A stretch of DNA of 64,000 nt. It comes from Sympetrum striolatum. Taxonomy: Eukaryota > Arthropoda > Insecta > Odonata > Libellulidae. This document shows positions 33,701 through 61,100 of the stretch, in pieces; position 1 is the first letter of the stretch, and each line of letters begins with the position of its first letter. The DNA is taken from assembly GCA_947579665.1 (NCBI GenBank), contig OX388343.1, positions 100,259,657-100,323,656 on the forward strand, written 5' to 3'. The translations under genes and the position numbers were made by a program. Below the pieces are notes generated by a model. That model saw nothing but the letters and a program-made list of their open reading frames with translations. It searched no databases and had not been told where the DNA came from.

Positions 33701-36700
33701 ATGTCAACAATTGGCTTTGGAGACTACGTACCTCAGGTAATCCTTTCCTTGTCATTTATAATGCAGCAAATAGGAAAAAGTATTTATATAAATTAATATA
33801 GCTTGTCTTACTTCAGCAGTCTGTGAGGGAAAGTTGCATAAATATCAAGGTGAATATCATGAAGACTATGGTATTCCTTTTGATCCTTTCTATCAGGCTA
33901 TAATCAAATATGTTATTATCCTTTTTATGCTTTTTGTGTTTAGAATTTATTTTAGCATTTTAACATTTTCTCTTCTTCTTTTGTAAAATTTTTCTGTGGC
34001 TGGAGTTTCTCCTTATCACATCTTAAAAAGCAGACAGTTATAGGAGAATGATACTTGCTGAGGATTTATGTTGTCAGCCTATGATAGTACTCAATAAATG
34101 TGAAATGATTTCTAGTATTATTTCAAACTTCATTATGAACATAATTTTTCTGAAGACAAACTTAAAAAAAAATTCAGAAGATATGTTTGCTGATTAGCAG
34201 CGAGTGTTTCAAAAAGTCAATTATTAAATTCAAATGTTAGATCTTAGCTGTTTCTCTCTGTCATTTCATGCGTTGACGTAATCAAATTCAAGTCTGATAT
34301 AGTAAGTAATCTTTCTTTATTTTTTGGAATAAATTAAAAGCTGATGCTATATTTTGAGCTTGAATATTATTTTTGCAGCGTGTTTTAAATACTAAGATTT
34401 TTTCACTTTTATGCATCACCTAATAATTCATTTATTTATGTAATTTTGATCAGAGCTGCATCAGTTTAGCTGCTTGTGTGTCATGCATGTTATAATGAGA
34501 ATATTACACCTTTCATAGAAAATGAAAATAAATGTTCAAGTTGAGCCATTAGAGAGAACTATTTTACATTGATTTTTGAATGAATGATATGTTACTTTTC
34601 ATTGAAACCAAAATTTAAAAGTATATCAGAATGTAAGTTGCTTATTCTGTAACTGGCTAAGTCTGTTACCTAGTCAGTTCAAGTTATAGCAAGACGGCTA
34701 ACTTTAAAATGAAGTAGGCTTAGATAGATGCCCACATAAGTTATGGCAGCCACTTAAGAATTTCTTACAGTAAATGCTGAAAGTCTGCATGAATTTATTA
34801 TTGTAGATGTTTCATTCATCATTTTTATTTCTAAATAAATCATTAAAAAAATTGAACTTTTCAAGGCAGAACATTGCTTTGCAGTATGTTGATAATTTTT
34901 TGCAGTAAAGTAGAAAAATTATTTTACCTTCTGGTACCTTGCAGAAATAGAAGATAGGTTTCAAGTGCAAAGAGAATCATTACTCTGGAATTCCAGCAAG
35001 TTTTGTAATCTGTTATAGTCCATTTGCAATCTTGGGTCTGATAATATTCTACTGACGTTTATATACTGACGTTTTATTTATTCCACTGTACAAATTTCAC
35101 TGCAGGAAAGGTGTTTCCGTATGGTTCCCCTTTCAGTAAAGGCCTCTCAAATTTTCTGAGTTGGACTTTGTACTGTGGCCTATTATCTGAGTTGTATTAG
35201 GCATCAAGATTGTGAATGGGCTATACATATATTATGTTCAAAATTATGTAAACACGTTTCATTGATGAATGTCTAAATTATGTACTAGATTTAATTTTAT
35301 AATTTATTAATTCATAAGATGCTCTAAAGCAATTTACCATAAATTGATTCATCAGATTTGCAAAATTTAATAACATTTTCTCAAGAATTCCTCCTATATA
35401 ATATGCAAATAATATTACTTGTAAGTGAACCTTCCTTGGTGACTCAAAAATTTATTTATTTCCTTTCCTTTGTATAAGAGCTTTAGGTGTATTGTTATTT
35501 TACATTTTCTTAGGATCTTCACAGCTGTTAAACATAGCTGTTGACGTTGGACTATAATTGATTATATACTATCAAGAGTTATTTTTTAGTTATCCGAATT
35601 TATTAAAGCCCCAAAAATTCATTATTTGCAAGCAAACAAACTGTGTGGTGATTCCAACCTATGGGGGTTAGAGTCTCCATGGCTACAATTTGCAAGGTTG
35701 TTATTCCTGATGAATATTTTGGCAACTAAGTTACCCTCTTAAAGATATGAAGATAATAGTTCTGAATTTCAATCTTACCAATCATAACCTCAGATATCTC
35801 TAACCACTGTTGGTTCTTCTCCATGTCCACCTGGTTTGATTACTTGTAAACTACCTATATCTTTGTGAACCTTTTAAACTATAATATGCCAACACATCGG
35901 TATTCCTTTTTCCTTTATAAATATTTCCCAAATAAAACTTGCATTTTTTCATTATACGAGTAAAATGTAGCTTGCATACTGCAAGCAGATCGACAACACT
36001 TATTTCATTTGGGCATTATATCGGGACGGTCCTAAAAAGAAAAAAAAAGGTTGAACATATTCTTAAAATTTGCTGCAGTTTAATCCTCTGGCATCGAACC
36101 CTGGTCTTTCTGGTTATACGTCCAAATCAGTACAACAGAAAATCACCACCTCTAACTATGTGTGAAAATTCAAGCAGAAATGTTTGCTTCAATTGCCCCA
36201 AAGGACGTCCTACTTTTCCCATATATTCCTTATGAGAGAAATTTTAATGTGCTCTGGCATCGAACCCTGGTTCAGCATGGTCATATCTAATTTTTCTCTT
36301 AAACCGAGTCTTAATATACATCTTCTAGCAAAGCAAGATTTTCCTATTATTTCGATTAATACATCAAAATAAATAATGAAAACTAACTCAATGCATTTTA
36401 AATGGGGGATATATTTACCATCTGGCTTCGAACCCGGGTCTTTCTGGTAATACTTTCTATGCAGCACTAAAGAATATCACATCCTTTAACCATGTTTGAA
36501 AATTCAAGCAGAAATATTAGGTGCAACTGCCTCAAATTACGTCCTAATTTTCCCTTATATTCCTTATGAGAGAAACTTTTATGTGCTCTGGCATCGAACC
36601 CAGGAAATTTACAGTCTTTTCTAATTTTATTTCTGAAACCAATTCTTAATATATATCTTGTAGCGAAGCAAGAACTTCCTATTATTTTGATAAGTCCATC

Positions 36701-39700
36701 AAATAAAATAATGAAAAACTACCTCAATGTATTTTAAACGGCGGATTTTTGCATCGCCCTAGCATCGAACCCAGGATATTTTGCGAGTTAGTCATTACCG
36801 TTTCCGATAGATCATGACCGTATATAAAGGCTCCTAGAGTTTCGATTTTCTACCTATCAGGGAAGTATTTTTTAAAAATTCCGGAAAATCAAAGCAATGC
36901 ATTTAAATGGAAAAAATCGGGACTTTGGGGCCCTCTGGAATCGAACCCATGACACTGAGGTACAAAATCACATTTTTTCTGAGGGTTTCACGTTAGGGCC
37001 AATACGTCGTAAAAATTTCAAGTCAATGACGCTTGTGGTTTAGGCTGTGAATTAGTATCCTATCTATCTATATGAATATATGAATGAATCCGGAGAAGCA
37101 TCTATATATAATAGATATATATGTTGTACTTTTACAATGAAATAGGATTATACTCGTACCCTGTAAGTATGACAGGAATGTAACCATTTTTAAAACTATT
37201 CAAGTTTACAAAATATAATTCAGTGTTACAAGTATTAAGTCAAATTTTCTCCAGTCTAAGCTGACTACATACTTGTTTTGCTTTCTCATTTTTTATTTAG
37301 AAATAAAATTATCCCCATTTTTATAGTCTCATGATGGTATTGACTTAAAGCTATGAATTCAGTTTTGTTTGTGAGATAGCTAACTCATATGTCCTACATA
37401 CCTATGAAATATATGTAGAAGTTAAAGTTCATATGTCAATTGCCACAATGATAGGAGACTTTTAATTGTATAATCATCTCATTCACAAAGTTGATTTGCA
37501 AGCCTATGCTTGATGAATACAATATGCTTGTCTTTCCAGTACATTGTTAGTAATAATTATAAGCTATTGCAGTATTTTTTGACTATGATGATTTCTCAAT
37601 TTGATAGTTTACAATTGCTCAAAATTTTCATTATTTATTATAGAAAGCTTTAATAGTGGCCCATGTAGTACTGCGTAAAATGTCAGGTTATGAAAGGATG
37701 AGTAATTATCCTATAATTGACCAAATAAATGAATAACTTCTTCAAACATATTTATTTAACATTGAACCTTTTTGCTATGACCATAGCAGGTAAGTTACAA
37801 TTGTTGGCTTTTGCTAATGCACTTTTGTATGTTACTTCATAAAGGATCCATTTTTAAAACAAACTCAATTGTATGTACAAATATTGATCCAAAATTTTTC
37901 ATGGAGGTAGGACATAAAGCCTGTACAACTGTTTAAGTTTTCCTATTGAATTACTTATCTGCTTGAACAATAAGCTCATCAGGGAGGAAGGGATGGATAG
38001 TTTCAAGTTTTATCCAAATTTCTGTAATATTCAATTTAGTACACTGAAGAGATATACATATTATACATTCCATTCTATACACATATTTTTCTGCTTACCT
38101 TGAGAAAATGCTGTAGATGTAAGATTCTTAGTATTTTGATAATTTGCAAGTCAATGAAAATTGAATACTCTAAAAAGACTAAATTCAACAAGTATACGTG
38201 TACATTACAAAGTACTCAAATTTTAGCATAAATTGGAAGGATAGCATATATGTTAGCTGGCACACATTTGCATTGCACACTAATCCTAGCAATGCCAAGG
38301 TACAAGGCTGAACTTCAAAAATATGACATAATTCTTATTTCAAAATGATACACACATATTTTTATGGCTTTGCTCAGAGTTTATGAGTGCCATACATAGA
38401 ACAGCTAATCAATATGAGGATGTAATACTCTGCACTACAACATATCTAAGCAAGTTCAGCTTCCAATACACTTTGCAACATAATGATCTATTTACTGTAA
38501 TAAACTTATTTACCTTCGTATCGAATGTTCACTGCGCACTTTATAAAAAGAATGCACCTTAATGAAATTTTAACAAATAATCATCAAAGCACCGTAGTGT
38601 TTTCTCTTACTGCTTTTTACAATTGTTTTTACTGAAGGATTAGTAGTCTCATCCCATATTAGCACTTTAGATATTTAAGTATGCATGAAAATATCTGGCT
38701 AATGAATATTCTTATCACTTCCTGCATAATTTTTAAAGGTGAAATTTCTTAGAAAAGGACTGAGATTAAGCTCTAATGTCTGGTATTGATATTCGGGTGT
38801 TAATGTAAAATTTATTAAATAATAAATACATGTACATGATTTAGGAAAAGTCCATCAAGAATGTTTCTGATTTAACTTATTCAGCATATACCTATAGTGA
38901 ATGTCTAACTACTTTTTATCTTATGTTTTAGCATCCAATGTACATGATGGCATCCATTGTTTACTTGATCTTTGGCTTGGCCCTGACTTCAATGTGTATC
39001 AACGTTGTTCAGGTGAGAAATAAACTTAGGAATACTCATCTATTACTAAAATATTTTGGGTTTAAAATAGTACACTGTTGAATACTTGAAAATACAGAAA
39101 ACATTATGGAAAATTATCAAAAATCGCTGACCAGAAGTAAGCTTATCTTAGGGAAAGAGTAAAGTGATAGATGCTTATATTCCCACAACATAGATTCTCT
39201 AAGATTTATGTGCCTCTTGAGTTACCTTCAGAGTGCTCCAATAGTTCAATACTCCACTTTTTTCAAGTAATAGAAAATAATCATCTCCATTTCAAATTTT
39301 CATGAACTATAACTTTTTCAGAGTCAGATGTCAATACTATAAAAATATTAGACTGAAAAATAAATAACTTATTTAGAGCTACTTTTCAATAAAATTTTCA
39401 ATGATACCTATGTTCTGATTTGTATGTGTAGTTAGCATTTTTACCAATGTATACAGCAGTAGTTATATCCATTACGAGTAAAATGTTGCTTGCATACTTG
39501 ATCTTATTTCATACAAAGTTTGAAGTCGATATCATGCCAGGAAGTACCTAAAACTTGTTTCTGTTATCTCCATAAGAAATGCATTGAGAAATGTAAATGG
39601 CTCTCTGGGATCAAACCAAGCGAATATAAAAAATTTGATTATGAAACATATTTATGATCTCTAACTTCATGCCGAATTTCAAGTTTCCATGCCGTAGGGA

Positions 39701-41736
39701 AGTGGTTCAAAAAAAAATCTTAAAAATCGCCACAATATATTTTAAATGGCCGATTTTTGCCCCGACCTAGCATCAAACCATGGACAATATTCGAAGATGT
39801 CTTTTTGATTTTCGTTGGATATGCACGGCTCCTAGCGATCCCTTGAATTTCAACTCTCTACTTTTCCGGGAAGTGCCTCAAAATAATTTTCGAAAATCCC
39901 CACCATGTATCCTTATGGAGAAAATCGGGACTTTGGGGCCTTCTGGTATCGAACCCATGACACTGAGGTTCAAAGTCGGTTTTTTTCTGGAGGTTACACG
40001 TTATGGCCAATACGTGGTAAAATTTTCAAGTCAGTGGCACTTGTGGAACATGGTTAGAATTTTGATCCCCTATATATATATAGGTATATCCGGAGAAGCG
40101 TCTATATATAATAGATTATTCAGGAGTAAATGTTGTCCCTTTTAGATGTAACTTATCAATTTAATTAAATTACTACTTATGAAAAATTATTATTGTTATT
40201 ATATATACATAAGTTACTACCTGAAAACCAGGTGTGTCACATTATTTCCTACTTAACTATTACAAAGTTTTCATAATAAATATAAAACAATGCATCATAA
40301 TCATTCCTGGACAATCATCATATCAGATTAAATTAAATATTATAAAGATAATTACACACATTGATTTCCTTAATCATCATTATATTTTAATTTCAATAAA
40401 TTTCTTTAAAAAAATATCTCTATTTTGCAGGAAGGGGCTGAAAGTTTCCTTGGGTAGGTCATTTCAATTTGCTGCAGTTCTATTTATGAAGGAAAATTTC
40501 TGAGCATCATTTCTGTGACCCATAATCCTAATTATAAAATTGTGGTAATTTATTCCCAAAAAATATCTGATGTGGTCAAAACATGACTTTCTCCATATTT
40601 AATGAAAACAGAAGCCTAAGCCAGTAATATATAAATAACTCTAAAACTGAGTGTTACAGAAAAATATTTCAAACAAAAGTTGTAGTAAAATACATCATCT
40701 ATAACTTTGGTACAAATTGTATATAAATACATCACATTCTGTCAGATATTTAAGAAAAACTACAATTTTTTGATAAAAAGCAACTTACGGTTTGCGAGCA
40801 TTCACTAATAACTCCTAAACAATCAGTGTTACGAAAAAATGATTCAAACTAAAGTTGTAGTAATGTATATTATCTACAACCTTTGTATGTAATTGTATAT
40901 ACCTACATTGCATTCTGACAGAGATATGTATGAAAAACTTCCATTTCTGGATAAACAACAACTTCCGGTTAACCATTATTCAAGAATAACTCTTAAGCAA
41001 TCAGTCTTATGAAAAAATAATGCAGACAAAAGTTGTAGTAATGTACATTATCTATAACTTTTGTATGTAATTGTATAAACCTACATTGCATTCTGACAGA
41101 CAGGAATCTGACCAGGGACTACTTTCACTGATGCAGAAAATACTGCCCATATGGCTATTCAGGAGCTCCTAATTACAAGACATTTCAGACATGAAATTGA
41201 AACACCCTGTGATAATTTCTTTAATATTATTATAGATATATCCTGAAACTGCAAACCTTATTAATAATAATGTAGGTGAAACTACACCCATGTATAATGT
41301 ACACTCCTGGCCAAAATTAACGCAGCACCTCCCTAGCGATCCTTATGGCCGGTGCTGCGTTAATTTTGGCCAGGACTGTACATAATGGTTATATTAGGGA
41401 GTGCAACATATATATAAATACATTCATGCAATATTTTATGATATTTTGCAAACATACAAATATTGAATGGATTTAAGTTAATAACAAGTTGTGCAGCTAA
41501 TTTTTTCAATTTTAAATTCATGAAATGTAAAAAATGTGTTTTATTTATGTAATAAAATTAATTAATTTGATTTATCACTCTAGGAGAAACTGTCAGACTC
41601 CTTCAGGCAGGCAAGCGTTAAAATAGGGGCAACGATTGGACTTCAAGTAACTGAGGAGGAAGAAGCTGCATTGGCTGCACAAAAAGTGGAACTTGCTGAA
41701 GTTCACACAACTGGAAAGAAGCAGGATAATACGTGA
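17911..41736 (+). CDS. Two-pore-domain (K2P/TWK-type) potassium channel, complete gene
   Basis: Six coding exons join as 17911-18799, 28893-29095, 30078-30469, 33652-33736, 38932-39012 and 41584-41736. All junctions are GT-AG and in phase, giving 600 aa and a TGA stop. K2P channels are dimeric membrane leak channels that set resting potential; each subunit has four membrane helices and two pore loops. Seen here: TM1 about residues 191-215, pore 1 ending in TIGYG (295-299), TM2 about 309-331, TM3 about 470-493, pore 2 TIGFGD (514-519) and TM4 about 524-550. The 190-residue cytoplasmic N-terminus is rich in Lys/Glu and has no recognised domain. The start at 17911 has G at -3 and +4 and lies downstream of a TATA-like sequence; an in-frame ATG at 17611 has a poorer context. 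The intron interrupting the first GYG filter codon is a known K2P position. The family call is firm; the orthologue is not assigned. Confidence 0.9.
21319..22904 (-). mobile_element. Non-autonomous Helitron, copy 1
   Basis: Read on the - strand it starts at 22904 with A|TCTATAAAAAATGGATGTAT. It ends with the hairpin CCCGTTGA-gaa-TCAACGGG (21350-21331), an 8-nt spacer and CTAG (21322-21319). TC at the start and hairpin plus CTRR at the end are the Helitron hallmarks. No Rep or helicase frame is present, so it must be mobilised in trans. The base after CTAG is A instead of the usual T. It lies head-to-tail with a second copy. Confidence 0.8.
22909..24765 (-). mobile_element. Non-autonomous Helitron, copy 2 (with nested insertion)
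   Basis: The - strand start is at 24765 (A|TCTATAAAAATGGATGTATG). The end is hairpin CCCGTTGA-gaa-TCAACGGG (22940-22921), spacer CGCCTCAG, CTAG and then T, fully canonical. The interior is collinear with copy 1 but diverged, for example CTCGTCTGGAGTCAAACCGT here against CTCTTCTGGGTTCGAACCGT. A 368-bp hAT-like element interrupts it near its 5' end. Confidence 0.82.
24367..24734. mobile_element. hAT-like non-autonomous element nested in Helitron copy 2
   Basis: Terminal inverted repeats TAGAGGTCTGCATGGGCC and, at the right, the complement of TAGAAGTCTACATGGGCC; the interior is rich in GGCCCG/AAGCCC. It is flanked by the direct repeat ATACATATATAC (24355-24366 and 24735-24746). The host is itself (ATAC)-rich, so the exact 8-bp hAT duplication cannot be separated from it. 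Confidence 0.65.
25182..25262. mobile_element. Palindromic MITE, copy 3
   Basis: A full 81-bp copy in intron 1 of the K2P gene, TA at both ends, arms nearly perfect (CACTCCTGGCCAAAATTAAC and GTTAATTTTGGCCAGGACTG). Confidence 0.88.
27383..28612 (+). mobile_element. pogo/Jerky-like DNA transposon relic
   Basis: Inverted ends TAGAGGAAAAGGTGTTA and, at the right, the complement of TAGAGGAAAAGGTGTAAG, each beginning with the TA target. It encloses a transposase relic in the same orientation. The organisation parallels the element at 1010-2062, whose end begins TAGGGGAGA. It ends only 280 bp before K2P coding exon 2. Confidence 0.75.
27750..28115 (+). pseudogene. DDE (pogo/Jerky-type) transposase relic
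   Basis: One frame has PVLLIVDGYFSHV, the block with the second catalytic Asp. After shifts come DKTFMGPLKT, then FGQMYLRLQMAEIAVNGFKV and TGLFHMNCDIFTSAEFIAA. These are the C-terminal blocks of DDE_1-family transposases (usually GFKxTGIYPxNxxIF). Several stops and frameshifts make it non-functional. Confidence 0.7.
28893..29095 (+). CDS. K2P channel coding exon 2 (filter GYG, TM2)
   Basis: Acceptor TTTCAG. The exon completes glycine 297 and reads GYGHIAPATNTGRA, then TM2 with the family-typical GIPMFLILLADFGK stretch, and ends in a basic cytoplasmic linker before GTGAGA. It covers residues 297-364, phase 1 in and phase 0 out. Confidence 0.92.
29096..30077 (+). other. K2P intron 2
   Basis: 982 bp, GTGAGA to TTTAG. 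AT-rich, with no repeat element recognised. Confidence 0.75.
30078..30469 (+). CDS. K2P channel coding exon 3 (cytoplasmic loop, TM3)
   Basis: Residues 365-494. A long Ser/Thr/Gly/Pro-rich TM2-TM3 loop of about 100 residues is followed by TM3 (LPISVAIIILLGYIFVGATI). Acceptor AATTTAG, donor GTGAGT. The loop is longer than in many K2P channels and is the likeliest site for phosphorylation or species-specific variation. Confidence 0.88.
32530..33364 (+). mobile_element. 5'-truncated non-LTR retrotransposon (LINE) fragment
   Basis: The frames encode the C-terminal tail of a LINE polyprotein: EILLQLYYGIIQSKLLYGLI, AQKRSLRIIAG, then HCYNTRFNSDLHLNFNRNEL and SLVLHWYNKLPIECK. It ends in a (TTA) repeat tail at about 33350. 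This tail with YNTR and YNKLP motifs is common in arthropod LINEs; the clade is left open. It is interrupted by a SINE foldback. Confidence 0.7.
32741..32908. mobile_element. SINE inverted pair inserted in the LINE fragment
   Basis: Arms of 56 bp (32741-32796 and 32853-32908) with about three mismatches. The left part read on the - strand is a tRNA-like head (A box TAGTTTAGTGG, B box GGTTTGAGTCC) with tail AGTCACTATTTTTCTCTTCT; the right arm repeats the B-box half and tail on the + strand. Confidence 0.7.
33384..33512 (+). mobile_element. tRNA-derived SINE with target-site duplication
   Basis: A box TAGTCATGTGG; B box in a perfect T-arm stem (CCGGG-TTCGAAT-CCCGG). A short tail ends CTATTACTATTA. 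The 15-bp sequence TGAATAGTTTGGAGG occurs on both sides (33369-33383 and 33513-33527), the duplication left by LINE-assisted insertion. It is therefore a retroposed SINE, not a tRNA gene. Confidence 0.85.
33652..33736 (+). CDS. K2P channel coding exon 4 (pore loop 2)
   Basis: A short 85-bp exon with acceptor CCAACAG and donor GTAATC. It encodes the second pore helix (WEEWSFFESFYFVFISM) and the filter STIGFGDYVPQ, residues 495-523. The Phe in place of the filter Tyr is normal for K2P pore 2. Confidence 0.92.
33737..38931 (+). other. K2P intron 4
   Basis: 5.2 kb. Apart from the monomer-array element at 35951-37115 nothing is recognised; the rest is AT-rich. Confidence 0.75.
35951..37115 (-). 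mobile_element. Helitron-like element with six ~167-bp B-box monomers (copy A)
   Basis: On the - strand it starts A|TCTATTATATATAGATGCTT at 37115. It ends with the hairpin GCTTGCA-gta-TGCAAGC (35986-35970) and ACATTTTACTCGT. In between, the core TCGAACCC (seen on +; GGGTTCGA in element sense) recurs at about 36094, 36260, 36428, 36594, 36765 and 36941, a period of 166-176 bp. There is no coding capacity. Confidence 0.65.
38932..39012 (+). CDS. K2P channel coding exon 5 (TM4)
   Basis: An 81-bp exon in phase 0 on both sides, acceptor GTTTTAG and donor GTGAGA. It encodes HPMYMMASIVYLIFGLALTS and the end of TM4, residues 524-550. It is isolated between 5.2-kb and 2.6-kb introns. Confidence 0.9.
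39471..40115 (-). mobile_element. Helitron-like monomer-array element (copy B, three monomers)
   Basis: The start at 40115 (A|TCTATTATATATAGACGCTT) and the end GCAACATTTTACTCGTAAT are conserved. Cores lie at about 39611, 39774 and 39949. The 3' hairpin has lost one arm. It lies in K2P intron 5. Confidence 0.65.
40637..41100. repeat. Tandem repeat, ~175-bp unit, about 2.7 copies
   Basis: Units start at about 40637, 40810 and 40988. Each has AGTTGTAGTAA, CATTATCTA-type and TTGCATTCTGACAGA blocks in the same order. The sequence is unrelated to the B-box monomers but of similar length. Confidence 0.8.
41300..41380. mobile_element. Palindromic MITE, copy 4
   Basis: A full 81-bp copy in the last K2P intron, about 200 bp before coding exon 6. 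TA at both ends; arms and centre match copy 3 almost exactly, suggesting recent activity of the family. Confidence 0.88.
41584..41736 (+). CDS. K2P channel coding exon 6 (C-terminal tail, stop)
   Basis: Acceptor CACTCTAG. It begins EKLSDSFRQASVKIGATIGL, the conserved post-TM4 segment, then a short acidic tail of 50 residues in all, ending in TGA at 41734-41736. Confidence 0.9.
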   Translation, partial: EKLSDSFRQASVKIGATIGLQVTEEEEAALAAQKVELAEVHTTGKKQDNT

Positions 41737-42810
41737 ATGAAAATCTTTAAAAGACAATTTTACAAATCCAAATCATGAATGATCTCGTCTTAAAGAGGAA
41801 ACTTGTTTGCTTCTTGCTGTCTTCATCAATTATTGCCTTCTTCAATACTTTATCAGTGGATTCTGGTAACAATTTGAATCTTCTAGGTAAAAATCTGAAA
41901 ATATTTTAGCAAAATATTTTTGGGTTCTAAAACAATGAGGTGCTTCTGATAAGATGTAATTACTTAAAAATTATTGAATCTGGCATCGTAATCAAAATTC
42001 TATTGGTAAGTTACATCACGTTTTTAAGTTTTCTTTTCGCTGTACCAGTTTTGAAGCATCTTATTGGAATATTAAGTTATGATTTCTTCAACAAAATATT
42101 ATTTAATATGATGATTTTAATGTACTTTATTAAGGTATTCCAGTGTTTATGTTTTACGTTTATAAAATTTCATATTACTAAGTGAAAAGAAATTTACTCT
42201 TGAAAGAGTAAGTGATGACATTGTTTTGAGCAGTTTAATGTAATCTTCAGCGAAATTTGCTCGCTAACTCTCAGCAGACTTTTTGAGCCAATGATTTTTT
42301 TAATGAAAAATCTATAATTTGAATATAAAACGAGAATTATTTTATGTATGATTTAAAATAAGTTTTGAGACTGACATTGTTAGCTGTAAGCATTAGCTGT
42401 TAAGTTGAATTACAAATGTGGTCTTGGTAGAATTCTGAATTGAGAAAAGGGAATCTTAAGATTTTAAGAGGCAAAATTTGTCTGTTCACTTATAATTCAG
42501 TTTTGTGCCTTGCTCTATTTACTTTTTGAAAAGATTTAAATGGAATGCTTCATTAATACATTCTTCATTGAGAGAAGATAAGGAATATATTTTTCATGAA
42601 TGCACAATGCTTGTATGCCCTAATGCTCTCTTTACCTTGAGCAATGACTGATTTTCATTATAAATCAAGCTGAAAAAATTATTGATGCCATCAAAGACAC
42701 TTTGGTTAGATAAGAATGATAAATATATATCATGTATTTATAAGCAACAAAGAGTTGATTTTTTTCAATTGAAAAAATATTCTTTATACAATAAATGTTA
42801 AAAACAGCCT
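41737..42810 (+). other. 3' UTR of the K2P gene with poly(A) signal at 42790
   Basis: An AT-rich stretch without coding potential follows the stop codon. AATAAA at 42790-42795 is the first canonical poly(A) signal I see, giving a UTR of about 1.05 kb. The exact cleavage site is not visible. Confidence 0.5.
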
Positions 42811-42879
42811 TATACATGTTGAGTGAGCTAATCTGATTTACTCAAACTACTGTAAATCATGCATAAACAGTTTATATTT

Positions 42880-43350: not shown

Positions 43351-44687
43351 TTAAGTAAAACTGTCAACTTTCCCATCTTCAATACTGTCATTGAAATTCC
43401 TGGCACTTTCAACAATTTGAACCAAACATTTGCCAAATTCCTTGAGAACATTTCTTTCAAGGGCAGAATTAGACACATTACTGTTTTGTCGTTTTACATC
43501 AACTACTTGGGCAATCATGCATTGGCAAGCAGCCTCTATCACAGTTGGTGTCATGAATTCTATAGGCTTCTTTATTTGAATTTGTCCTTGGGGCTGGGTT
43601 TGTCCAGACCTGGGCTCAATGCTATCTCTGTAGGACCTGGGTAGTTCCTGTCTGTTTTTTACATCTTCAATCTCTTGACCGAAATCTTTTACATCTCTGT
43701 ATGCACTGGAAATATTGCGACAGCCAACGCATTTACAAATGTCAGTACAAGAAATCTTTGCTTCGTAACATTCACAATAATTCTTCAAGCACCCAGAACG
43801 CTTGCATTGACAACCTCTGTTGTGGCGCCTTCCATCGCCAATTAATCCCTTTCCAATCTTAGGCCGAAAGGCATCCCTATTTCGATCAAGACAGGATTTA
43901 ATTGCTTTCTGGCGATCTTCTTCATGATCTAGATTATTGGAGCAATTAATACATTTGCACTGATAACAGAACTCTCCATTTGCAAAACATTCACAATAAA
44001 GCTTTAAACATTGAGATTTGGTGCAGTTGCATGGTTTACGAGGAAGCAGGGCTTCAGCAGGAAGAGTAACTGGCTTTGTAACTTTTGGTTCTTCTTTGTG
44101 GACAACGATCTCTTCAGGAGGTTTTGTTTGGATTCTGGATACATATGGTGGTTTTGTTTTGGATAAATCGAATGGTTTTTTGATTTTGACCTCCTGCTTT
44201 GATGAAGGAATAACAACCATTTGAAGAGTGGGACAAGAAGATAATTGAGTTGAGGGTGAAGAAACTTGAGTTGCTGCCGGATTTACAGTCTTGGTAGGGT
44301 TTATAAGTTGAACATACTGAACCTGTTTTCCTTGAACTTGAAATTTGGGAATGGCTCTAACAACGTTCTGAGGAATACATTGTAATAACTGCCCAGTGCT
44401 GGAAACTGCAGTCATTACAGGAGTTACATTACTATCCATGGAGCTTGAAGTCTGAATGGTGTATACTCGTTGCTGTCCAGATATTTGAGAGGTAGAGGTG
44501 GCAACACCTTGGTTTGCATTTTGAAATATATATGTCGGAGTAGTTCGCATTGTAGCAGGAATCACAGTGATCTTTGTTGGTGAACTTGTCATGGAAGTAT
44601 TAACCCTTGTAAAGGTGATTCCTTGACTTACAGCAGTATGTTGTATTTTAGTGGGTGAGATCGGCACCTCAACAATTTGTTGATAGC
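43351..44687 (-). CDS. lin-54: lin-54 coding exon 2 (CXC domains, stop)
   Basis: A single 1337-bp exon carries residues 10 to 454, including both CXC repeats and the C-terminal domain. This is odd beside neighbours whose exons are mostly 80-400 bp. No internal stop or frameshift is seen. Confidence 0.92.
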
Positions 44688-45894
44688 CTGAAATATAACA
44701 AACGTTTATTGTTAACATTTTTCACTTAAATTAGTTTTGACGAGAGAGAAATGGTTAACATGAAACTTGTTATCGATGTGCTAAAGCTGAAAGATTAGTT
44801 AGCATTACTTATTGAAGACATGACTGATGAATATCAACATAACATAATTTAACTCGGAATGTTGTTTTACAAATTTAAAAGGATAAGCAAAACGCGCTTA
44901 ACGTCAACTTCGGAATAAAGATAATGTTGAATTATAAATTCAGATTAAAAGGTTAAATTGGCTTGGACATCAAACTCGGACGTATCAATTCCTTACATTT
45001 ACAATTAATTCACCAAAATATCATATATACAATTTTCAATAATTACAATAATGCTGAGCATTTCAACACACAAAAAATTTCACAAAAATGACAAAATGAA
45101 AATGTAACAATCAATGCAACGTTCGATTGAGGAGATTATGCTACAGAGACATAAAAAAATATGTATTTACCGCAAATGGATTGGAAGTGAAATAAATTCG
45201 AAAATGGGTAAATTGGCTAAATCGGTTCGCGCATGCGCACACATCCAAATTTACAAAAACATTGTTCAAACTTAACACAGCCCGGCATCACATCACAGAA
45301 GTGATGTCGCTGTGACGAAAAATGAAATAAACGTATAAAAGCCACTCAGCTTCTGCAATACTTAGGGCGACCATCATCACACCACTACGTGGGATACGAC
45401 AGGGCCCTGCATATTTTGGCGGGAACTACATTGTTTAGTTCGATAAAAACATTTCGGGAAATAAACTAGGTAGAAACATTATGTGAACCAACAAATATAA
45501 AATCCGTTATTCCGCGCTAAACTATAGAAAACGACAAGGAAAACTGCTTAAGTCTAAATAAGGCAAGATGTAAATTCTACCAAGTCAACAAATAATTGCA
45601 GCGGGATGTATACAGCAACGAATAACTACAGAATAATAATTTTTATGTAGAAACGAACCAAGAAAAAGCAACTCAATAAAATCGTACAGATATGGTAATT
45701 GAAAAGACCTTTATACGTCGATCATGACATGCTCTAATATTCACAACTTAAAGAGTAAACAATCACAATAAATCATGCTATTACAATGTCTAACGCGATA
45801 TTAACACAATTATGCTTCATAGAGTAACATTTTCTTAAAAGTTAATCATATATTCATATAAAATACCTTCAGCTTCGTTTCCTTCATCGTTCAT
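43351..45894 (-). CDS. lin-54: LIN54-like CXC-domain protein (MuvB/DREAM DNA-binding subunit)
   Basis: Two coding exons on the - strand, 45894-45867 and 44687-43351, give 454 aa. LIN54 is the sequence-specific subunit of the nuclear MuvB core (DREAM and MMB complexes) and binds CHR elements in cell-cycle promoters. Two tesmin/TSO1 cysteine-rich repeats are seen at about residues 226-261 (KPCNCTKSQCLKLYCECF) and 300-335 (CQCKRSGCLKNYCECYEAK). They are joined by the diagnostic linker with RNRDAFRPKIGKG, and both repeats keep the tyrosine before CEC that inserts into the DNA minor groove. The C-terminus resembles the helical MuvB-binding end of LIN54. The first 200 residues are Ser/Thr/Gln-rich and low in complexity. 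Fly and human relatives are longer; 454 aa is short but appears complete. It shares a promoter with BRD8. Confidence 0.93.
45228..45240 (+). promoter_or_regulatory. NRF1/Ewg-type palindrome in lin-54 intron 1
   Basis: CGCGCATGCGCAC matches the NRF1 (insect Ewg) consensus YGCGCAYGCGCR. It lies about 190 bp from the E2F-like site in a CpG-containing patch. Confidence 0.45.
45414..45425 (+). promoter_or_regulatory. E2F-consensus-like site in lin-54 intron 1
   Basis: TTTTGGCGGGAA matches the canonical E2F/DP consensus TTTSSCGC plus the GGGAA context. It is about 440 bp inside the gene from the start codon. Binding is inferred. Confidence 0.45.
45867..45894 (-). CDS. lin-54: lin-54 coding exon 1 (28 bp)
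   Basis: On the - strand ATG AAC GAT GAA GGA AAC GAA GCT GAA G is followed by donor GTATTT. It joins in phase to the acceptor TATATTTCAG at 44688, giving MNDEGNEAEGYQQIVEV. The apparent ATG at 44718, which opens the long frame, lies inside the intron upstream of that acceptor and is not the real start. Confidence 0.75.
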
Positions 45895-46163
45895 ATTGAG
45901 TAATCAAGCAAAGTCGATGCAATTCTTGTACCTTAATACTGAATATCGATAGTTATCGATGGCACGATAGCGATTCAAAACTCTCCAGCGATATATGAAC
46001 CGAACTGAACGACCTCAACAACGATCGTCAATTGTTACCGCAAGCTATGGTAAAAAGCTTTGGATTTACCGTGGCGGAATCGAAAGAGTTCTACAAAGTT
46101 GAGTGGTTTTCTATATACGTTCCTCTAATTTTCGTCGAGGTCGTAGAAATATAATTAATTACA
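45895..46163. promoter_or_regulatory. Bidirectional promoter between lin-54 and BRD8
   Basis: Only 269 bp separate the divergent start codons. The core has TATCGATA at 45944-45951 (the DRE bound by DREF), a second TATCGAT at 45954-45960 and a further CGATA at 45965-45969. No TATA box is evident, as is usual for DRE-type housekeeping promoters. Both genes encode chromatin or cell-cycle regulators. Confidence 0.7.
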
Positions 46164-52100: not shown

Positions 52101-55100
52101 CACATTGGGAATCATATGTCACTTGTTCTATTTTACTACTCGGCAATCTGTTTTCTAGTGATTCTTTTTATGAGTATGCCATTGGGTTCTGCATCAAGAA
52201 ATAGTTCTTGTAGAGGTTAGTTATGTTGATATCTATGAAAGTAACTGATATTTTCTGGGCTTCTCTTTAAATAAATTTTCCCTAATTTTTATCAATTTAA
52301 AGCGTTTTGGTATTAGAACATATAGAATAACCGTAATGCCATTGCTCATGACTTAAAAACGTTTAATTTCTGTTGCTCATCATTACATTTATTATTCAAT
52401 TGCATTCTAGTCCATTTCTACATGTATATAGTAATTGTATATTAGTTATATTTAGTTATTTAATCTTAATCAAATTAAATTTTTATTTAGTTGATGTTTG
52501 CATTTTCCTTGAATATTCAAAAAAAGTATTTTATCATTATGAATAGTGCCATTCACTGTTAATTGGTTACTTGTATATTCTTGTGCTATCTTATGAATGG
52601 ATGATTTACCTGTAGCACAGCTGCCTGAAGTGGTGCATTACATGATAAGTGGCATATTGAATCCAGATCAAAATTAAAAATAATTTTTTCCACAATTACA
52701 CAAATAATGTAATCTACTCTTAAATTGTAGAGACTGTAATTATCATAGTTTTTTGGCATTATTGTATTTTTATGGTTCATCTAGAGTAAAAATGAAATAA
52801 TGGATGCATGAACTGTAAAAGGTTGACTACCCTTGATCTAACATGAAGCCCTGTTCCAAGTTTGGATAATGCATTAACTAGGTGCCTTTAACACATTAGT
52901 TATTTCACATGTGTCAACTTCTATTGATCATCATTATCTATATCTATTTTATTACATTTTTTATTTATCTATTGGTTGTTTTTGCAGCTGTTCCTGTATC
53001 AGGAAGTGGTGCTATTTCTCCATCTAAGTCTGTTGCTGTTAAAATTCTGAGTTCTACATCTAGTTTTCCATCTGAGGGACCGTCAGAAAAAAATCAGTCC
53101 AATCAACCATCATCATCTACATCTGGTAATTTTTTGACTAATATACTTGTTTTGGAATCCATATTTTTTAAGTTTCCTATACTCAATGTTGAATATTATC
53201 TACATCTACATTAATACCCTACAAGCCGCCTGGCAGGGGGTATAAACACTAGTTGAATCTAAACTAACTTCCTTATTCTGTTATTGTAGCGTATCGTTCA
53301 CGGAAAGAATAAATTTTTAAACGACTCGTCCTAGCATCTATTTCTCTTAACTTGCGGTCATTATCGGATCGACCGAGGTAGCAGGAGGGGTTGCATGATT
53401 CCTATTGTATCTTCCGTAAATGTAATTTCCCTGAATTTATTAAGCAATCGCAGCCTAGCTTCCAATCTCCTTTCTTTCAAGGATTCCCAACCTAGGTCTG
53501 AGAGCATTTGTGTAACGCTTGCTTTTTTATCGTAGCATTTCATAACAAAACAAACTGCTTTACGCTGCACTTTCTCGAGTTTGTGAGTACACGTTTCATC
53601 CGCCGGATCCCATATACTTGTCGCATATTCCAGAAGGGGTCTGACCAAGGTAAAATAACATCGCTCTCTCACCTTTTCATCGCATTTACCGACAATATGC
53701 TTTTCAAAGCCAAACCTTTTACTTGCTTTGCCGCAGATTTTACGAATATGCGTGCTCCAATTTAAGTTATTAGTCAAGTTGATCCCGAGATATTCAACTG
53801 AATCTACTACTTTGATATTAATTCCATTAATTTTGTACGGGTGATTTGGATGCAATTTTTTCTTTTCGAGGAAATTAACTATGGAGCATTTACCTACGTC
53901 AGTATCTAATTCCCATTTTTCTCACCACCTTTGGATGAGGACTAAATCGTTTTAGAGAGATGTTTGGTCTTCCTCGTTTGTTATTTCCCTATATATAACT
54001 GAGTCATCTGCAAATATCTTCACATTGCTAACTATCTCGTCACTTAAGTCATTGATATAGATCAGGAAAAGAAGAGGTCTAATTACACTGCCTTGAGGTA
54101 TGCCAGAGGTAACTTTGACTCTATTTGAGCTAACGCCATCCAGTACAACTTGTTGTTCTCTTTCATAGAGAAAATCCTTAACCCAGTCGACTACTTTCTT
54201 GTTAATGCCTGCTAATATTAGTTTGTAAATTAGTTTGTAGTGGGGGACTCTATCGAATGCTTTTTTGAAATCTAGGAAAATAGCGTCCACTTGCTTTTTA
54301 CTCTTGGCAGACTTTAAGATATCGTGTACAAATAGAGCAAGTTGAGTTTCACATGATCAGGACTTTCGAAAACCATGCTAGTTCACGTCAAGGAATTCAT
54401 TTCTATCTAAGAATTCTATGAGTGAGCTTATGATGATATGTTCCATTACCTTTCCGGGCAGCGAAGTTAATGATATGGGTCTATAATTTCCTGGGTCCTC
54501 CTATAATCTTTTTTTGTAAACAATAGTAATATTAGCGAATTTCCAATTGGATGGGACCCTACCTTCATTTATTGATTTACAAAATATAATTTTGATATAG
54601 GGGGCGATGCTTTCTGCCTGTTCTTTAAGCACTCTTGCTGTAATGCCTTCTGTCCCTGGCAACTTATTTGGCTTAATTTTGCGTAAGATTTTAACTATAC
54701 CATTAAATTCTTTTAATTACTATTTTAAATTTAATGTGATGATTACTTTCCTCAAATCTATGTAGCCAATCAAAAGGTTTTAGTTATTGAAGCAATATTA
54801 CCATATTTACTCGAAAATAACTCTCACCCTTTTGGATCTTATTTCACCTCAAAAATTGAGGTGTGCATTAGAATTGATGGTGCACTAGATTTGCGCACAA
54901 TACTAGTATGCACATGTCCTGTAGTGCACAGACAGCTTCATCCTCAGCTCACTTTGGTTCTATGTTACTCTTCACACATTCCACCACTGTGCTATCGATG
55001 TTTTCACTGCCCCCGAAGATTACAGGTTATTGATAAGTAATAATAATAATTGATAATAATAATAATTGATAATAATAATAATTGATAATAATAATAATTG

Positions 55101-58100
55101 ATATGTAATTGGTTAGCCCATCAAACTTTTTTAAATACCAACTTTGAATTGGTTAACGTGCACACTTATGTATGCACCACAAATTATCTAGGAAGACCCA
55201 GGTTCAAAGCCAGGCAGTAATTATATCTCCCATTTAAAATACATTGAGGTAGTTTTCATTATTTTTTTTTGATATGTAGAACTTACGGCATGGACTACCA
55301 GTATTTCGTATATAGTGTATATGCAGAGATGAATTTATGATCTATGAGGCCCTTGGTGCAGTGGCGCATCAAGAGCTCTGACCTTTTTTTTCTGCTGAAG
55401 AGTACACAACCCCAATCATCACCCAAGGCTTAAAGATTGCTTGATAAATTCAGCGAAAGCTCCACATACCCGTAAATATGGCTCCGATTTCAGCTAATGT
55501 TATGTTTTTGGCAGCAGAGCAGGCCTAGAGCCGACATAGATACCAATGGGACATTAAGATAGGTGAGTTTTGAACTCAATGTTCAACGTATGCACTTCTT
55601 AAGCCTATCCTTTAGTTAGATGACTCACACCATAAGATAATAATAAAATGGCTTTATTCGGGCAAGATTGAGACTAAAAGTCTTCTATCTAACCTATTGT
55701 TGTACAATACATAAATAATTAATTTAAAGAGATAGTATGAAAAAGATATGAGAAGAATTGTGGATGTAAAAAACCTCAGAAATTCTTGGGAAAAATAATT
55801 TATCCACTGCAGGAAAACACCCACTAAGAAGGGGGGTGTGGAAAACCTGCACAAACCTACCGATAGTCATAACTAAAAAGATGGTAAGAAACAAGATTAC
55901 ATTTTATAAATACACTATCAATAGGTACATATATGGGATACATCAATAAACATAGTCATGTTGACATTTAAATAAATGCCAACCTGGGATAAGATTCCCA
56001 TGAGAAAAATTTGAAAGTGCTGATTCGTTTACTCCTCGCAAAAATGCAAGGGAACATTCGTGAAGTAGTTCGAAACTTTCACCCTGAAAACAGAGCTTAA
56101 GATTGCGTTTAAGAGATAAACAGATTGATAAAACCCTCAGTTAGATCTTCTGCCTCTATCGAAAAACCGTTAGTTAAGGGCTATGTGTTTTTTTGTGAAA
56201 TGACCATTATTAGATGCATAAATTAGGATTGCCTTTTTTAGGGCTGTTATCGGAGGGTACACCTGCAGATGAGTTTAGCGACAATTCCAAAGGCACTGGT
56301 TCCTTTATTAAGCATTCTGGACGATTGAAAGTCTGTACAGTAGACTCTTCATTACTCGGGCTGATTGAAAATGTACTGATCCTTATTTTATGATTACCTG
56401 TTATTTTGCTGTATATTTATAAAAATAATTCAATAACCAAATTTCTGTAGAAATTTGAAGAAGTGTTGGACAAGATATCACTAAAAATAATTTTCGATGA
56501 TTTTACTAGTAATATATCATTTTGGAAGCGAATCAGTCAGCTGAAAGGTATTGTGCACGCAAAGTACGCACAAATTTATCGGAACAGTGACTTGATGGCT
56601 TGAAATAAATTTGATGAACTGTTAAAACTGTGGCTTAAATTCTCCAGCTTCCTTTTTCCTCCTTTCACCAATTTTTCTCTGGTAATAGAATCCAATGAAC
56701 CTCCTACCTGTCTGTACTTATCCTGTCAACCACATGGTCATGCAATGCCCCTTCAAAATTTCAATTCATGGAAAAATTTTGTTTTCTTTGAACACGATGC
56801 ATAAGACTGTTTGCGTCAGCTCTCTACTGGTTAACGACCTAACTACTACTTGGTCTAAATAATTGTAAGTTGACGACTTCAATTTTTTCTCCTTGGTGTG
56901 TAACTTTAATTCTGGAAATTCAATTATAATATCAACTATAATCAAGAGTGTACCGTATTTTTTAATGCAGCCGAATTTTTTATGTTCGGTTTGTGACGCA
57001 TTCAACTGAATACTTAGCTAATACATAAATAACGAAATCATGCTTAATTGTAAGCCTACCAGAAAATTTCATCTGGTATAAATGATTTTTGGTTCTTAGA
57101 AGAGAAGTTAATTTAAAAAATAAGGGATGAAGTCACTCCTAAGAAACCTGCCGATGATACAGATACAGCAAGTATGCTCAAAGACTCGGGAAGTTTATAT
57201 CTACTACACTAAAAAACTTCAGCATAGAAAAAAATGACGTTTTGATAGATATTGGACGTATCCAAACAACACTTATGATAAGTTTCCAATAGTTCATTTA
57301 TGTAATTTACTATCTTGGAAAGTGTAATCAGTTGGCTACCTAAGTGTTAAACTCCTCTATTTTTCAATGTATTTAGTTTTTGAAAGAATTGACATATTTG
57401 TAATAATTAACCAGCATGAATATGCTATACATTGGCAAATCCTGTCTGCGCCACTGCCTTGGTGGAATCTAGAATGTGGTCTTATAGTCTTGCCTCCTTA
57501 CAAGCCTCCTCATGACTCCCATGAGACCCCCAGTGCTAGCAAGGCCTCCTGCAGTTGCTGCGTACACCACATATATAGACGCTTCTCCGGATATACCTAT
57601 ATATATAATCTATATATCTATTATATATAGACGTTTCTCCGGATATACCTAGATATACACTTGCTCACTCACTGGGGATCAAAATTCTAACCATGTTCCA
57701 CAAGTGCCACGGACTTGAAATTTTTACAACCTGGTGGCCATAACGTGTAACCTCCATTGAAAGGACGACTTTGAACCTCAGTGTCATGGGTTTGATTCCA
57801 GAAGGGCCCAAAGTCCCGATTTTCTCCATAAAGATACATGGTGGGGATTTTCGAAAATTTTTTGAGTTACTTACTGGAAAAGTAGAGAGTTGATATTCAA
57901 GGGATAGCTAGAAGCCGTGCATATCCAACGAAAATCAAAAAGAGATCTTCGAATATTATCCTTAGTTTGATGCTAGGTCGGGGCAAAAATCACCCGTTCA
58001 AAATATATTGTGGCGAATTTTAAGATTTTTTTTGGATCCTTTCTCAATGGCATGGAAACTTGAAATTTGGCAGTTGGTTAGAGATCATAAATATATTTCA

Positions 58101-61100
58101 TAATCAAATTTTATATATTCGCTGATGGGTTCGATCCCAGAGGGCCATTTACATCTCTTAATGGATTTCTTATGGAGATAACGGAAACAAATTTTAGGTA
58201 CTTTCTGGCATGATATAGTCTTCAAACTTTGCATTATATTAGATCAAGTACTAACAAGTCATCCTGTGCATTTACAGCTACCAAGATGTCCTGGGTTTGA
58301 CCCCAAGTGTCTCTAAAATCAGTAACTGATCTGATTTTTAAGAATTATTTTGAACCCCTTCCCAATAATATCAAAACTTGAAATTTGGCATATAGATAGA
58401 GATCTTAGATACATTTTTAAAACATGTTTTAGATTTCCTAGATCGTCCTTGGTTCGAATCCAGAGAGCCATTTACATTCGTGAAAAGTAGGACGTTGTTT
58501 CAGGCAGTTGCAGCCAATATTTTTGCTTGAATTTTAACACATAGTTAAAAATAGCAAATTAGCAGCAATCTTCTGTTGTGCTGCATAGAAACTATTACCA
58601 GAAAGACCAGGGTCGAAGCCAGGTGGTAAATATATCCCTCATTTAAAATACATTGAGGTAGTTTTCATTATTTGGATGCACTCATTGAAATAATAGTAAG
58701 CTCTTGCTTAGCTAAAAGTTGTTTATTAATACTCCGTTTAAGAAAAAAATTTAGATAAGAGTATGCTGTTCCTGGGTTCGATGCCAGAACTCATTAAAAT
58801 TTCTCACGTAAGGAATACATGTGAAAAGTAGGACGTCGTTTGAGGCAGTTGAATCAAATATTTCTGTAAGTTCACCAGGGAGACCCGGGTTCGATGCCAG
58901 ATGAAGAATATTTTCAATCCTTTTTTTTTTCTTTTGAGGACTGTCCCGATATGATGCTGATATGAAATTAGTGTTGTCGATCTGCTTGCAGTATGCAAGC
59001 CACATTTTACTCGTAATAGATACGTTCATTCATTCATTGATAGGGGATCAAAATTCTAACCATGTTCCAAGTGCCACTGACATGAAATTTTTAGGATGTA
59101 ATGGCCATAACAAGTAGCCTCCAGATAAAAGCTGACTTTGACCTTCAGTGTCATGGGTTTGATTCCAGAAGGCCCCAAAGTCACAATCACTTCCCGATAA
59201 GATAGAAACTTGAAACTTGGTGTGTAGATAGAGATCATAAATATCTTTTATGTATGTTGCTGAACGTTCCGCTGATTGTCCTTGGGTCGATTCCAAGGTG
59301 CCATTTACAGTCCTCAATGCATTTCTTATGGAGATAACAGAAACAAATTTTAGTTACTTCCTGGGATGATATCAACTTCAATCTTTGTATTAAAAATGAT
59401 CAAGTACTAAAACGTCATACTGTGCATTCACAGCTGCAAATATGTCCTGGGTTCGACACCAGGCATCTCTAAAATTAGTAACTGTTACGAGTTAAAAGAA
59501 TTTTTTTTTAACCCTTTTCCGATAATATAGAAACTTGAAATTCGGCATATAAATAGAGATCATAGTTGCATTTCAAAAGCGTGCTTTAGATTTCATTGAT
59601 CGTCCTTGGTTCGATCCCAGAAAGCCATTTACATTACCCAATGCATTTTAGATGGGGATAATGTAGTCTTATTTCAGGACCTTCCTGGTATGATATGGAA
59701 TCAAACTTTGCATTAAATAAGATCAGGTCCTAACAAGTTATAATGTCTACTCGCACTCTTCGTTCGACACTAGGCGTATACAAAAATCAGAAATTTATAT
59801 GATTTTTAAGATTCTTTTTAACGCTTCCCGATAGCATTGAAACTCAAAACTTGGCATGTGAATAAAGATTATAAATAGATTTCATATGCTTGCAGTATGC
59901 AAGCAACATTTTACTCATTAATATACATAAGGAAAAACGGACTTGATAAAAGTCTCAGGAATCAAACCCGGGATCTTCCTCATCCGTAACCGTAGCTCTA
60001 GTAATCCGTAACTGGCTACCTGGCCAGGACTTGTTTTTCCTGGGTGCATGCCCTCATGTGCAAGGTGCTGCCCACTCATTTAATTTGTAATACTTAAAAA
60101 ATTGTGCCGTCATTTGATAAGCAGAAAGCAATCAATCCAATTCCTAGGCTTTCCGAGAGCCCTAGCCCTGCCAGAGAGCACCTTTGGGGCCTTTCTCAGT
60201 ATAATGAAGATGCCAAGGTATACAGTGTATGTATCTTTTGAGTAAGTTATATTCCGTCAACTCCTCGTTGGAAGCCTATGGTTTCTAAAACATAATGAAG
60301 AATCTCTTTTTGGTGGATATGTTGCTTTAATCCTTATTTTTAGAGAAGTATTTCTTCTTTGAAAACCACAAATCCTTCGAAAGAAGGCAGAAATGGTGCT
60401 GAGGGTTCTTGTCTGTGCAGCTCTTATGATAATACGGAGCCCATGCAGCATCTTACATTCTTTTCTTTCAAATGGAATTACCTTAAATAGCAATCAAATA
60501 CCTACACAAGTGGTCAATTAGTTTACGCGTAAACTACCAATAATTCATGTCACTAATACTAAAGTTTTTTTAAGAAGAATAATATAATAATGCTGAATCG
60601 TTAAGTTTAAAATTAAATTTTTGCGCTCATCATTTAAAATATTTCGTCTTTTGTGGTATCTAACCCCTTAAGAAAAATGATATTTCATCAGATTGTAATT
60701 TCAAAGGCATGTGCTTCTACTTATTCAAAGAGACCTACATACATTTGATGGTTGCAGAAATAGGAAATATTTAACTTGGAATTGGAAAATTTAATATTTT
60801 GTGTAAAGCTGTGTATTATAACTAGGAATTGCGTCTCTTACATTAAATTGTAATACCAGTTTCATAGTGATTATGTTTGCCAATTTTATTAGAGCAACAT
60901 TGTTTTCATATATTTTATGATAGTCTGTGTCATGGGATTACATGTTCCTCTTATTTGATAATTGTCTGCTTCTCTTTTAGTTGATGTGAAAGAATAGAGT
61001 TAGGATCATTTTATTCATTCATTTGTAAGGAAGTAATTTTTCATTGTAATGAGTGAGCATAATTTGGCATTTTTAAACTCTGCCCTTAAATAGGCAATTG

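What the first reader, a model, noticed from the sequence alone, without database searches (positions are those of the whole stretch)
35951..59920. Dispersed element family built of ~160-175-bp monomers, each with a tRNA B-box-like core
Four copies (35951-37115, 39471-40115, 57617-59017, 59038-59920) carry between three and about eight monomers with GGTTCGAnnCC cores at a regular 160-175-bp period. All intact starts read A|TCTATTATATATAGACG, and three of the four 3' ends keep the hairpin GCTTGCA-gta-TGCAAGC followed by ACATTTTACTCGTAA. Central tandem arrays and 3' hairpins are known for Helentron-associated elements (e.g. DINE-1-like). A B-box in every monomer, in element sense, is unusual: each unit could recruit TFIIIC and act as a polymerase III or insulator-type site. 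The canonical CTRR end is not evident, so the class is inferred.
Basis: partly seen in the sequence, partly recalled or inferred. Interest (0 to 1): 0.75.

Follow-up and report, generated by a model that had tools for sequence, protein, structure and literature searches.

The report
Dragonfly Helitron with B-box-like array
A jumping DNA family in a dragonfly genome, with over 24,000 exact left ends, carries a row of short repeats that each hold a motif resembling a tRNA-gene control site; the same motif also appears near the left end of other, distantly related jumping elements in that genome.

Summary
Four copies in the window carry 22 units at 113-176 nt spacing, each with a GGTTCGANNCCAG-like core in element sense. 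The fourth copy is split by the third. The window is from a dragonfly. The genome holds 24,471 exact 28-nt left ends (control 0). Ends are A|TC...CTCG|T, with a 17-nt hairpin 13 nt from the 3' end; four paralogous empty sites show insertion between A and T without duplication. An autonomous partner has identical ends, ten cores, then a ~1,750-aa open frame; a sister copy's frame is Rep/PIF1 helicase, Helraiser-like. So it is a Helitron with a CTCG end, not a Helentron. The core belongs to a 13-nt motif, GTTCGANNCCAGA, also found about 155-190 nt from the inferred left ends of two other families with 32-34% identical transposases. There is no A-box or tRNA fold. Private mutations hit the B-box as often as flanks; shared variants are rarer there. 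The motif looks selected for element spread rather than host use. I favour an amplified left-end recognition signal; TFIIIC binding is untested.

The parts
35957..37115 (-). copy 1, complete non-autonomous Helitron, 6 units; 5' end at 37115, 3' end at 35957
   Evidence: termini and flanks; units
35970..35986 (-). 3' hairpin of copy 1, GCTTGCA-gta-TGCAAGC, 13 nt from the 3' end
36087..36951 (-). six cores of copy 1 (18-nt windows starting at 36087, 36253, 36421, 36587, 36758, 36934)
39475..40115 (-). copy 2, 3 units, left arm of the 3' hairpin lost; 5' end at 40115
39604..39959 (-). three cores of copy 2 (at 39604, 39766, 39942)
57571..57616 (+). left fragment of copy 4 (first bases of the terminus missing), interrupted by copy 3
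   Evidence: 100% match to copy 2 positions 8-44
57617..59013 (+). copy 3, complete, 8 units, inserted between A and T inside copy 4
57785..58901 (+). eight cores of copy 3 (at 57785, 57960, 58124, 58290, 58447, 58606, 58771, 58884)
58984..59000 (+). 3' hairpin of copy 3
59014..59917 (+). right part of copy 4, 5 units, ends CTCA|T
59152..59774 (+). five cores of copy 4 (at 59152, 59280, 59446, 59604, 59757)
59888..59904 (+). 3' hairpin of copy 4
55188..55269 (+). solo fragment of one unit (type E)
22909..24368 (-). second Helitron family, copy with hairpin and CTAG|T 3' end at 22909; its left end (about 24368) is only approximate; degenerate left-end core at 24215-24232
22055..22904 (-). second Helitron family, next copy, inferred 5' end A|TCTATAAAAAATGG at 22904 (right end not mapped)
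22736..22748 (-). GTTCGAACCCAGA core, about 156 nt from the inferred 5' end at 22904
10252..10356 (-). fragment of the same kind, core GTTCGATCCCAGA at 10261-10273; left end not defined

Best explanation
SHOWN: this is a Helitron family with a Helraiser-type transposase. Autonomous copies carry, from the left end, an array of ~165-nt units and then the Rep/PIF1-helicase gene. The window copies share both ends and 3-8 units but no gene. Copies insert between A and T without target duplication and are often found inside one another's AT-rich left ends, as nests and head-to-tail rows. INFERRED: the window copies are deletion derivatives of the autonomous form; each unit derives from the left-terminal segment of a Helitron, whose GTTCGANNCCAGA core is a cis signal for mobilisation (bound by the transposase or a host factor), and the array multiplies that signal. 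The B-box resemblance is then the first nine positions of this Helitron signal rather than a polymerase III promoter. Identity part about 0.95; recognition-signal part about 0.45.
For: Ends: A before the left end 69/71, TC start 69/71, CTCG 73/82, T after 80/82 (CTC was part of the search pattern with 4 mismatches allowed, the last G and the T were not). Empty sites: joined flanks of copies in L010, L029, L037 and L042 match uninterrupted copies (0-2 mismatches to L013), and nothing matches if 2 bp are removed. 24,471 exact left ends, control 0. Autonomous copy C46:30251912-30261586: exact 5' end, 10 cores, a 1,756-aa open frame with PF14214, exact 3' end. Its relative on C5 has a 1,747-aa open frame behind a unit array and the exact 3' end: PF14214 2.4e-45, PIF1 1.2e-57, Helraiser 7lcc_A 3.2e-190. 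The exact 13-mer lies about 155-190 nt from the left end in family 1 and in two other families (L057, L058; left ends inferred) whose transposases are 32-34% identical; 0 occurrences in 2.56 Mb of random sequence with the window's dinucleotides. Between unit types the core is 0.79 identical, the rest 0.37. In 38 fetched copies plus copy 1, shared variants fall in the B-box at 4/1130 against 806/34033 in flanks, while private ones do not differ (11/1130 against 420/34033, p 0.58); by site, 4/60 against 198/907, p 0.003.
Against: No binding data. Taken as a whole, the 14-nt core does not deviate less than flanks in 23 copies plus copy 1 (56/1680 against 654/21634; its rank among 155 offsets is 96); the depletion shows only for shared variants, and the site set (60) leaves out the two leading G positions. 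Shared variants are not independent; the B-box alone is 2/30 against 198/907, p 0.043. Flanks of the core in family 1 resemble those of the other families only weakly (upstream 3, 28, 32 and 138 of 500 shuffles reach the score; downstream 5, 13, 106 and 127 of 500), so descent from a shared left end is not proven. The L054 family has no core near its roughly defined left boundary, and the left end of the L056 family was not reached. Left ends of L057 and L058 were read from sequence, not mapped by copies; L058 has a further exact core outside its inferred end. Gene conversion between units could also keep the core alike.
Confidence: 0.6

Rival explanations
1. The core is a true B-box that recruits TFIIIC without polymerase III (an extra-TFIIIC site), so the arrays are ready-made TFIIIC arrays or insulators.
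For: The pattern of fixed and free positions fits a B-box: G, T, T, C, G, A and C61 largely fixed, N59 and N60 free. Drosophila has TFIIIC sites away from tRNA genes that cluster at domain borders (PMC4226948, passages). C. elegans Helitrons have spread functional HSF-1 sites (PMC6927752, abstract).
Against: Conservation continues into CCAGA, outside a B-box. No A-box enrichment. No excess protection of the core from private mutations. C56, recalled as critical, is T in 6 of 22 window units.
Confidence: 0.15
2. The array is a promoter or enhancer for the Rep/helicase gene, carried passively by the non-autonomous copies.
For: In both autonomous copies read, the array lies upstream of the ORF, in the same sense.
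Against: 29 of 34 full copies, nearly all of the short gene-less length class, keep six cores (a sample chosen by similarity to copy 1), and shared variants are depleted in the B-box within that class, where no ORF needs a promoter.
Confidence: 0.2
3. The units are a satellite-like passenger; recombination and gene conversion among units keep the core alike and it has no function.
For: Satellite-like central repeats are common in HINE elements (PMC7492417, passages and part of Results). A 334-bp two-unit period in copy 1.
Against: The same 13-mer occurs near inferred left ends of other Helitron families, where no array of family-1 units was seen on that strand next to it.
Confidence: 0.15
4. 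A Helentron-associated element (HINE).
For: Central repeats, 5' microsatellite, 3' palindrome.
Against: A^T insertion, no significant subterminal inverted repeats, Helraiser-type transposase.
Confidence: 0.03

Closest known systems
Canonical animal Helitrons (Helraiser, PDB 7LCC)
   Same: TC start, 3' hairpin close to the end, A^T insertion without duplication, one Rep/PIF1-helicase ORF
   Different: 3' end CTCG instead of CTRR; array of ~165-nt units with a conserved core between the left end and the ORF
Cg_HINE elements of the Pacific oyster (PMC7492417) and DINE-1 (PMC4067079)
   Same: short arrays of satellite-like units (140-180 bp in the oyster) between end modules, 5' microsatellite, 3' palindrome
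   Different: those are Helentron-associated with subterminal inverted repeats and T-rich targets; the oyster paper's only 'B box' is a CENP-B reference title
Pearl / BIV160 / Cg170 bivalve repeats (PMC5139131, passages)
   Same: ~160-bp units that share two conserved motifs, in short arrays of a mobile element
   Different: sequence relation not tested; no bivalve DNA was available
C. elegans Helitrons with heat-shock elements (PMC6927752 abstract; PMC4595182 passages)
   Same: Helitrons that carry a short repeated binding-type motif and spread it
   Different: there the motif is an HSF-1 site with occupancy data; here the binder is unknown
tRNA-type polymerase III promoters
   Same: core matches GTTCRANNC
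   Different: no A-box, no tRNA fold, conservation beyond the B-box

Membership tests
Canonical Helitron | 5' TC end | tested here: met
   69 of 71 left ends
Canonical Helitron | 3' CTRR end | tested here: not met
   CTCG 73 of 82, CTTG 3, CTCT 2, CTCA 2, CTAG 1, TTAC 1. Hence called a variant, filed by transposase and insertion mode
Canonical Helitron | 16-20-nt hairpin about 11 nt from the 3' end | tested here: met
   17-nt hairpin, 13 nt from the end; loop GTA 74 of 82; lost in window copy 2
Canonical Helitron | A^T insertion without target duplication | tested here: met
   flank counts and four paralogous empty sites; of 14 full copies with any joined-flank match, 2 were ambiguous and 8 uninformative (neighbouring copies in rows)
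Canonical Helitron | Rep/PIF1-helicase transposase in an autonomous partner with the same ends | tested here: met
Helentron / HINE | subterminal inverted repeats | tested here: not met
   best matches (9-10 of 14) reached by 75-163 of 200 random sequences in the 4 window copies
Helentron / HINE | T-rich TT target | tested here: not met
Helentron / HINE | endonuclease domain in the partner | tested here: not met
   none among the Pfam hits of the 1,747-aa ORF; other ORFs of the element were not scanned
Helentron / HINE | central tandem repeats and 3' palindrome | tested here: met
Polymerase III type 2 promoter | B-box | tested here: met
   322 of 370 units keep GTTCRANNC
Polymerase III type 2 promoter | A-box upstream | tested here: not met
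   6 of 22 against 5.4 expected
Extra-TFIIIC site | TFIIIC occupancy | not testable with these tools
   needs ChIP
BIV160 / Pearl repeats | sequence homology of the unit | not tested
   no bivalve sequences available

The most novel reading that the evidence does not exclude
A Helitron lineage uses a B-box as its left-end signal: host TFIIIC docks on the GTTCGANNCCAGA motif and guides or licenses rolling-circle transposition, and array amplification has scattered perhaps over a hundred thousand TFIIIC-type sites through a dragonfly genome (24,471 exact left ends times several units, extrapolated).
Probability: 0.12. Interest if true: 0.85.

Novelty: new variant of a known kind. Interest (0 to 1): 0.6.

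Why it matters
It ties satellite-like arrays to an identified autonomous Helitron with the same ends; in the oyster study no autonomous Helentron could be related to its array-bearing elements (PMC7492417, passage). It also points to a motif shared by Helitrons whose transposases are about 33% identical, a concrete candidate for a left-end recognition signal, and offers a natural test of whether mobile elements spread TFIIIC-type sites in bulk.

Tried and rejected
Arrays of tRNA or SINE origin: ARAGORN and Rfam find no tRNA in the arrays (relaxed search of 57560-59930 only), and A-boxes are not enriched. Palindrome-binding reading of TTCGAA: the symmetric A at position 59 is found in only 3 of 22 units. 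Relatives in viral and prokaryote collections: 0 hits for both termini in viral contigs and 0 for the two-block pattern in viral and prokaryote contigs; three hits of a looser pattern (L001-L003) showed no such arrays (best unit match E 0.11) and were dropped as chance. The pairwise identity test of left ends was badly posed (gap-permissive null; only one of three pairs exceeded all shuffles) and is replaced. The block-1 scores use a matrix built from the same units, so their p-values are circular for family 1. Copies dropped before the mutation count: matches under 600 nt or under 85% identity to copy 1; 36 of 39 loci remained. Literature: all 10 searches used; Helitron with B-box and TFIIIC gave 0 papers, GGTTCGA with satellite DNA and transposable element gave 4 unrelated ones, Helitron with Odonata and dragonfly gave 1. 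This covers one open-licence library only. Not done: protein structure prediction, a transposase tree, genome-wide counts of the core and the 3' end (tool busy).
Full report
Organism and setting. The lin-54-like ORF at 43351-44721(-) is 83% identical to a Ladona fulva protein and 54% or less to the damselfly proteins listed, so the window is from a dragonfly. It lies at G000:C8:100259657-100323656 of a 1.35-Gb assembly.

Observation. The four copies and the regular cores are there. Units number 6, 3, 8 and 5. All 22 cores point in element sense. Spacings run from 113 to 176 nt and none of the 18 is near double length. Unit types are ordered: A-B-C-D-C'-E-F-E' in copy 3, A-B-C in copy 2, A-B-F-E-F-E' in copy 1, A-C-D-C'-D' in copy 4 (my typing from the alignment). 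Two blocks are conserved in a unit: ACTTGAAATTT-like, starting 82-83 nt upstream in 17 of 22 units, and the core. Core identity between types is 0.79 against 0.37 for the rest, and the core is the top window of 151. To avoid picking units by their core, I found 370 units by flanks only: 322 keep GTTCRANNC.

The fourth copy is not a separate truncated element. Its left end lies at 57571-57616, upstream of copy 3; the match to copy 2 stops at position 44 there and resumes at 44 after copy 3.

Genome level. The exact 28-nt left end occurs 24,471 times, the reversed control 0 times. The 100 places listed, all in the first 3 Mb of contig C1, often lie 1.1-2.4 kb apart or are stacked within tens of bases. 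In 39 loci plus the window, 71 left and 82 right ends gave A before the left end in 69, TC in 69, T after the right end in 80 and CTCG in 73. 51 of 71 left flanks and 53 of 82 right flanks are the family itself, a sample biased to copy-rich places. Four copies sit inside another copy's left module, and their joined flanks match uninterrupted copies without any duplication. Of the other ten full copies with a joined-flank match, two are ambiguous and eight match only with 2 bp removed; in these eight one flank is a neighbouring copy's own end, so they say nothing on duplication.

Autonomous partner. A Pfam PF14214 search gave 93 matches, many in long open frames. Of five loci read at length, one has family-1 units upstream of its ORF in the same sense. 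Its relative on C46 has the exact left end at 30251912, ten cores, a 1,756-aa open frame, and the exact right end at 30261557-30261586, 9,675 bp in all; the 3 kb in the middle of the frame was not fetched, but one search reports the frame open. The C5 copy has a 1,747-aa open frame and the exact right end, but no intact left terminus. The C5 ORF has Helitron_like_N, PIF1 and Pif1_2B domains and matches Helraiser over residues 427-1693. The window copies are therefore taken as internal-deletion derivatives of this Helitron (inference from shared ends, units and the last ~110 nt).

The core elsewhere. Two further families with long open transposase frames (L057, L058) and window copies at 22904 and 10264 carry GTTCGANNCCAGA. 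Where a left end could be inferred it lies about 156-168 nt in, in family 1 189 nt. These left ends were read from the sequence (A or G before TC, in two cases next to a CTAG end), not mapped by comparing copies, and L058 has another exact core 227 nt upstream, outside its inferred end. In the window the exact 13-mer occurs 13 times, 11 in family-1 arrays and 2 in these other copies; 0 in 2.56 Mb of random sequence. L057, L058 and the two window copies also share the ~100 nt downstream (0 of 500 shuffles in all six pairs); family 1 shares flanks only weakly. The L054 family has no core near its roughly defined left boundary, and the L056 left end was not reached.

Function. In 38 fetched copies plus copy 1, private mutations fall in the seven B-box positions as often as in flanks (11/1130 against 420/34033, p 0.58; non-CpG): no sign of host protection. 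Variants shared between copies are rarer there (4/1130 against 806/34033), also for block 1 (25/2310), CAG (6/678) and N59-N60 (4/452). The 14-nt core as a whole shows no lower total deviation than flanks (56/1680 against 654/21634 in a first set of 23 copies plus copy 1). Because shared variants are not independent, the site count is the fairer measure: 4 of 60 core sites against 198 of 907 flank sites, p 0.003; B-box alone 2 of 30, p 0.043; block 1 8 of 62, p 0.11. This fits, modestly, a signal needed while the element spreads. A-boxes are not enriched. That the motif runs on into CCAGA, across families, speaks for a Helitron signal of which the B-box is a subset. TFIIIC binding is not excluded.

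Known work. Helentron and Helitron features were taken from PMC4067079 (passages), oyster elements from PMC7492417 (abstract, passages, first part of Results), BIV160/Cg170 from PMC5139131 (passages), a scallop study from PMC5874043 (passages), HSF-1 Helitrons from PMC6927752 (abstract), Helitron satellites from PMC4595182 (passages), a review PMC6947457 (passages), TFIIIC in flies from PMC4226948 (passages). No paper on a B-box array in a Helitron appeared in the listings.

Noticed in passing
5252-5351 and 5519-5620; about 59929-60030: tRNA-related SINE-like repeats; two lie inverted to each other at 88% identity, a third, with the same tail as the copy at 5519-5620, lies directly beyond the 3' end of copy 4
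   Followed up: partly
32764-32835 (-), about 32823-32894 (+): tRNA-Ser-like gene (Rfam 52.8 bits) next to a partial inverted copy of itself
   Followed up: no
4773-4856, 13826-13884, 25181-25264, 41298-41381: about 84-bp repeat matching itself on both strands, up to 97% identical between copies, possibly a MITE
   Followed up: no
40634-41100: 178-bp tandem array of 2.7 copies close to copy 2; it gave no match to the units
   Followed up: no
53361-54356 (-): reverse-transcriptase-like ORF pieces, recognised by eye as a non-LTR retrotransposon
   Followed up: no
L047, L048, L049: another Helitron family whose copies are 99.4-99.8% identical over 3.5 kb with open frames of 1719-1761 aa, so probably recently active
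   Followed up: partly
L054:2174-2977; L056 ORF: tandem repeats inside Helitron ORFs: 63-bp units in L054, STPR peptide repeats in L056
   Followed up: no
G000:C1 first 3 Mb: left ends of the family stacked within tens of bases and in rows about 1.15-2.3 kb apart, almost satellite-like
   Followed up: partly
57608-57616 joined with 59014-59021: the target of copy 3 is a 17-nt exact inverted copy of the left end of copy 1
   Followed up: partly
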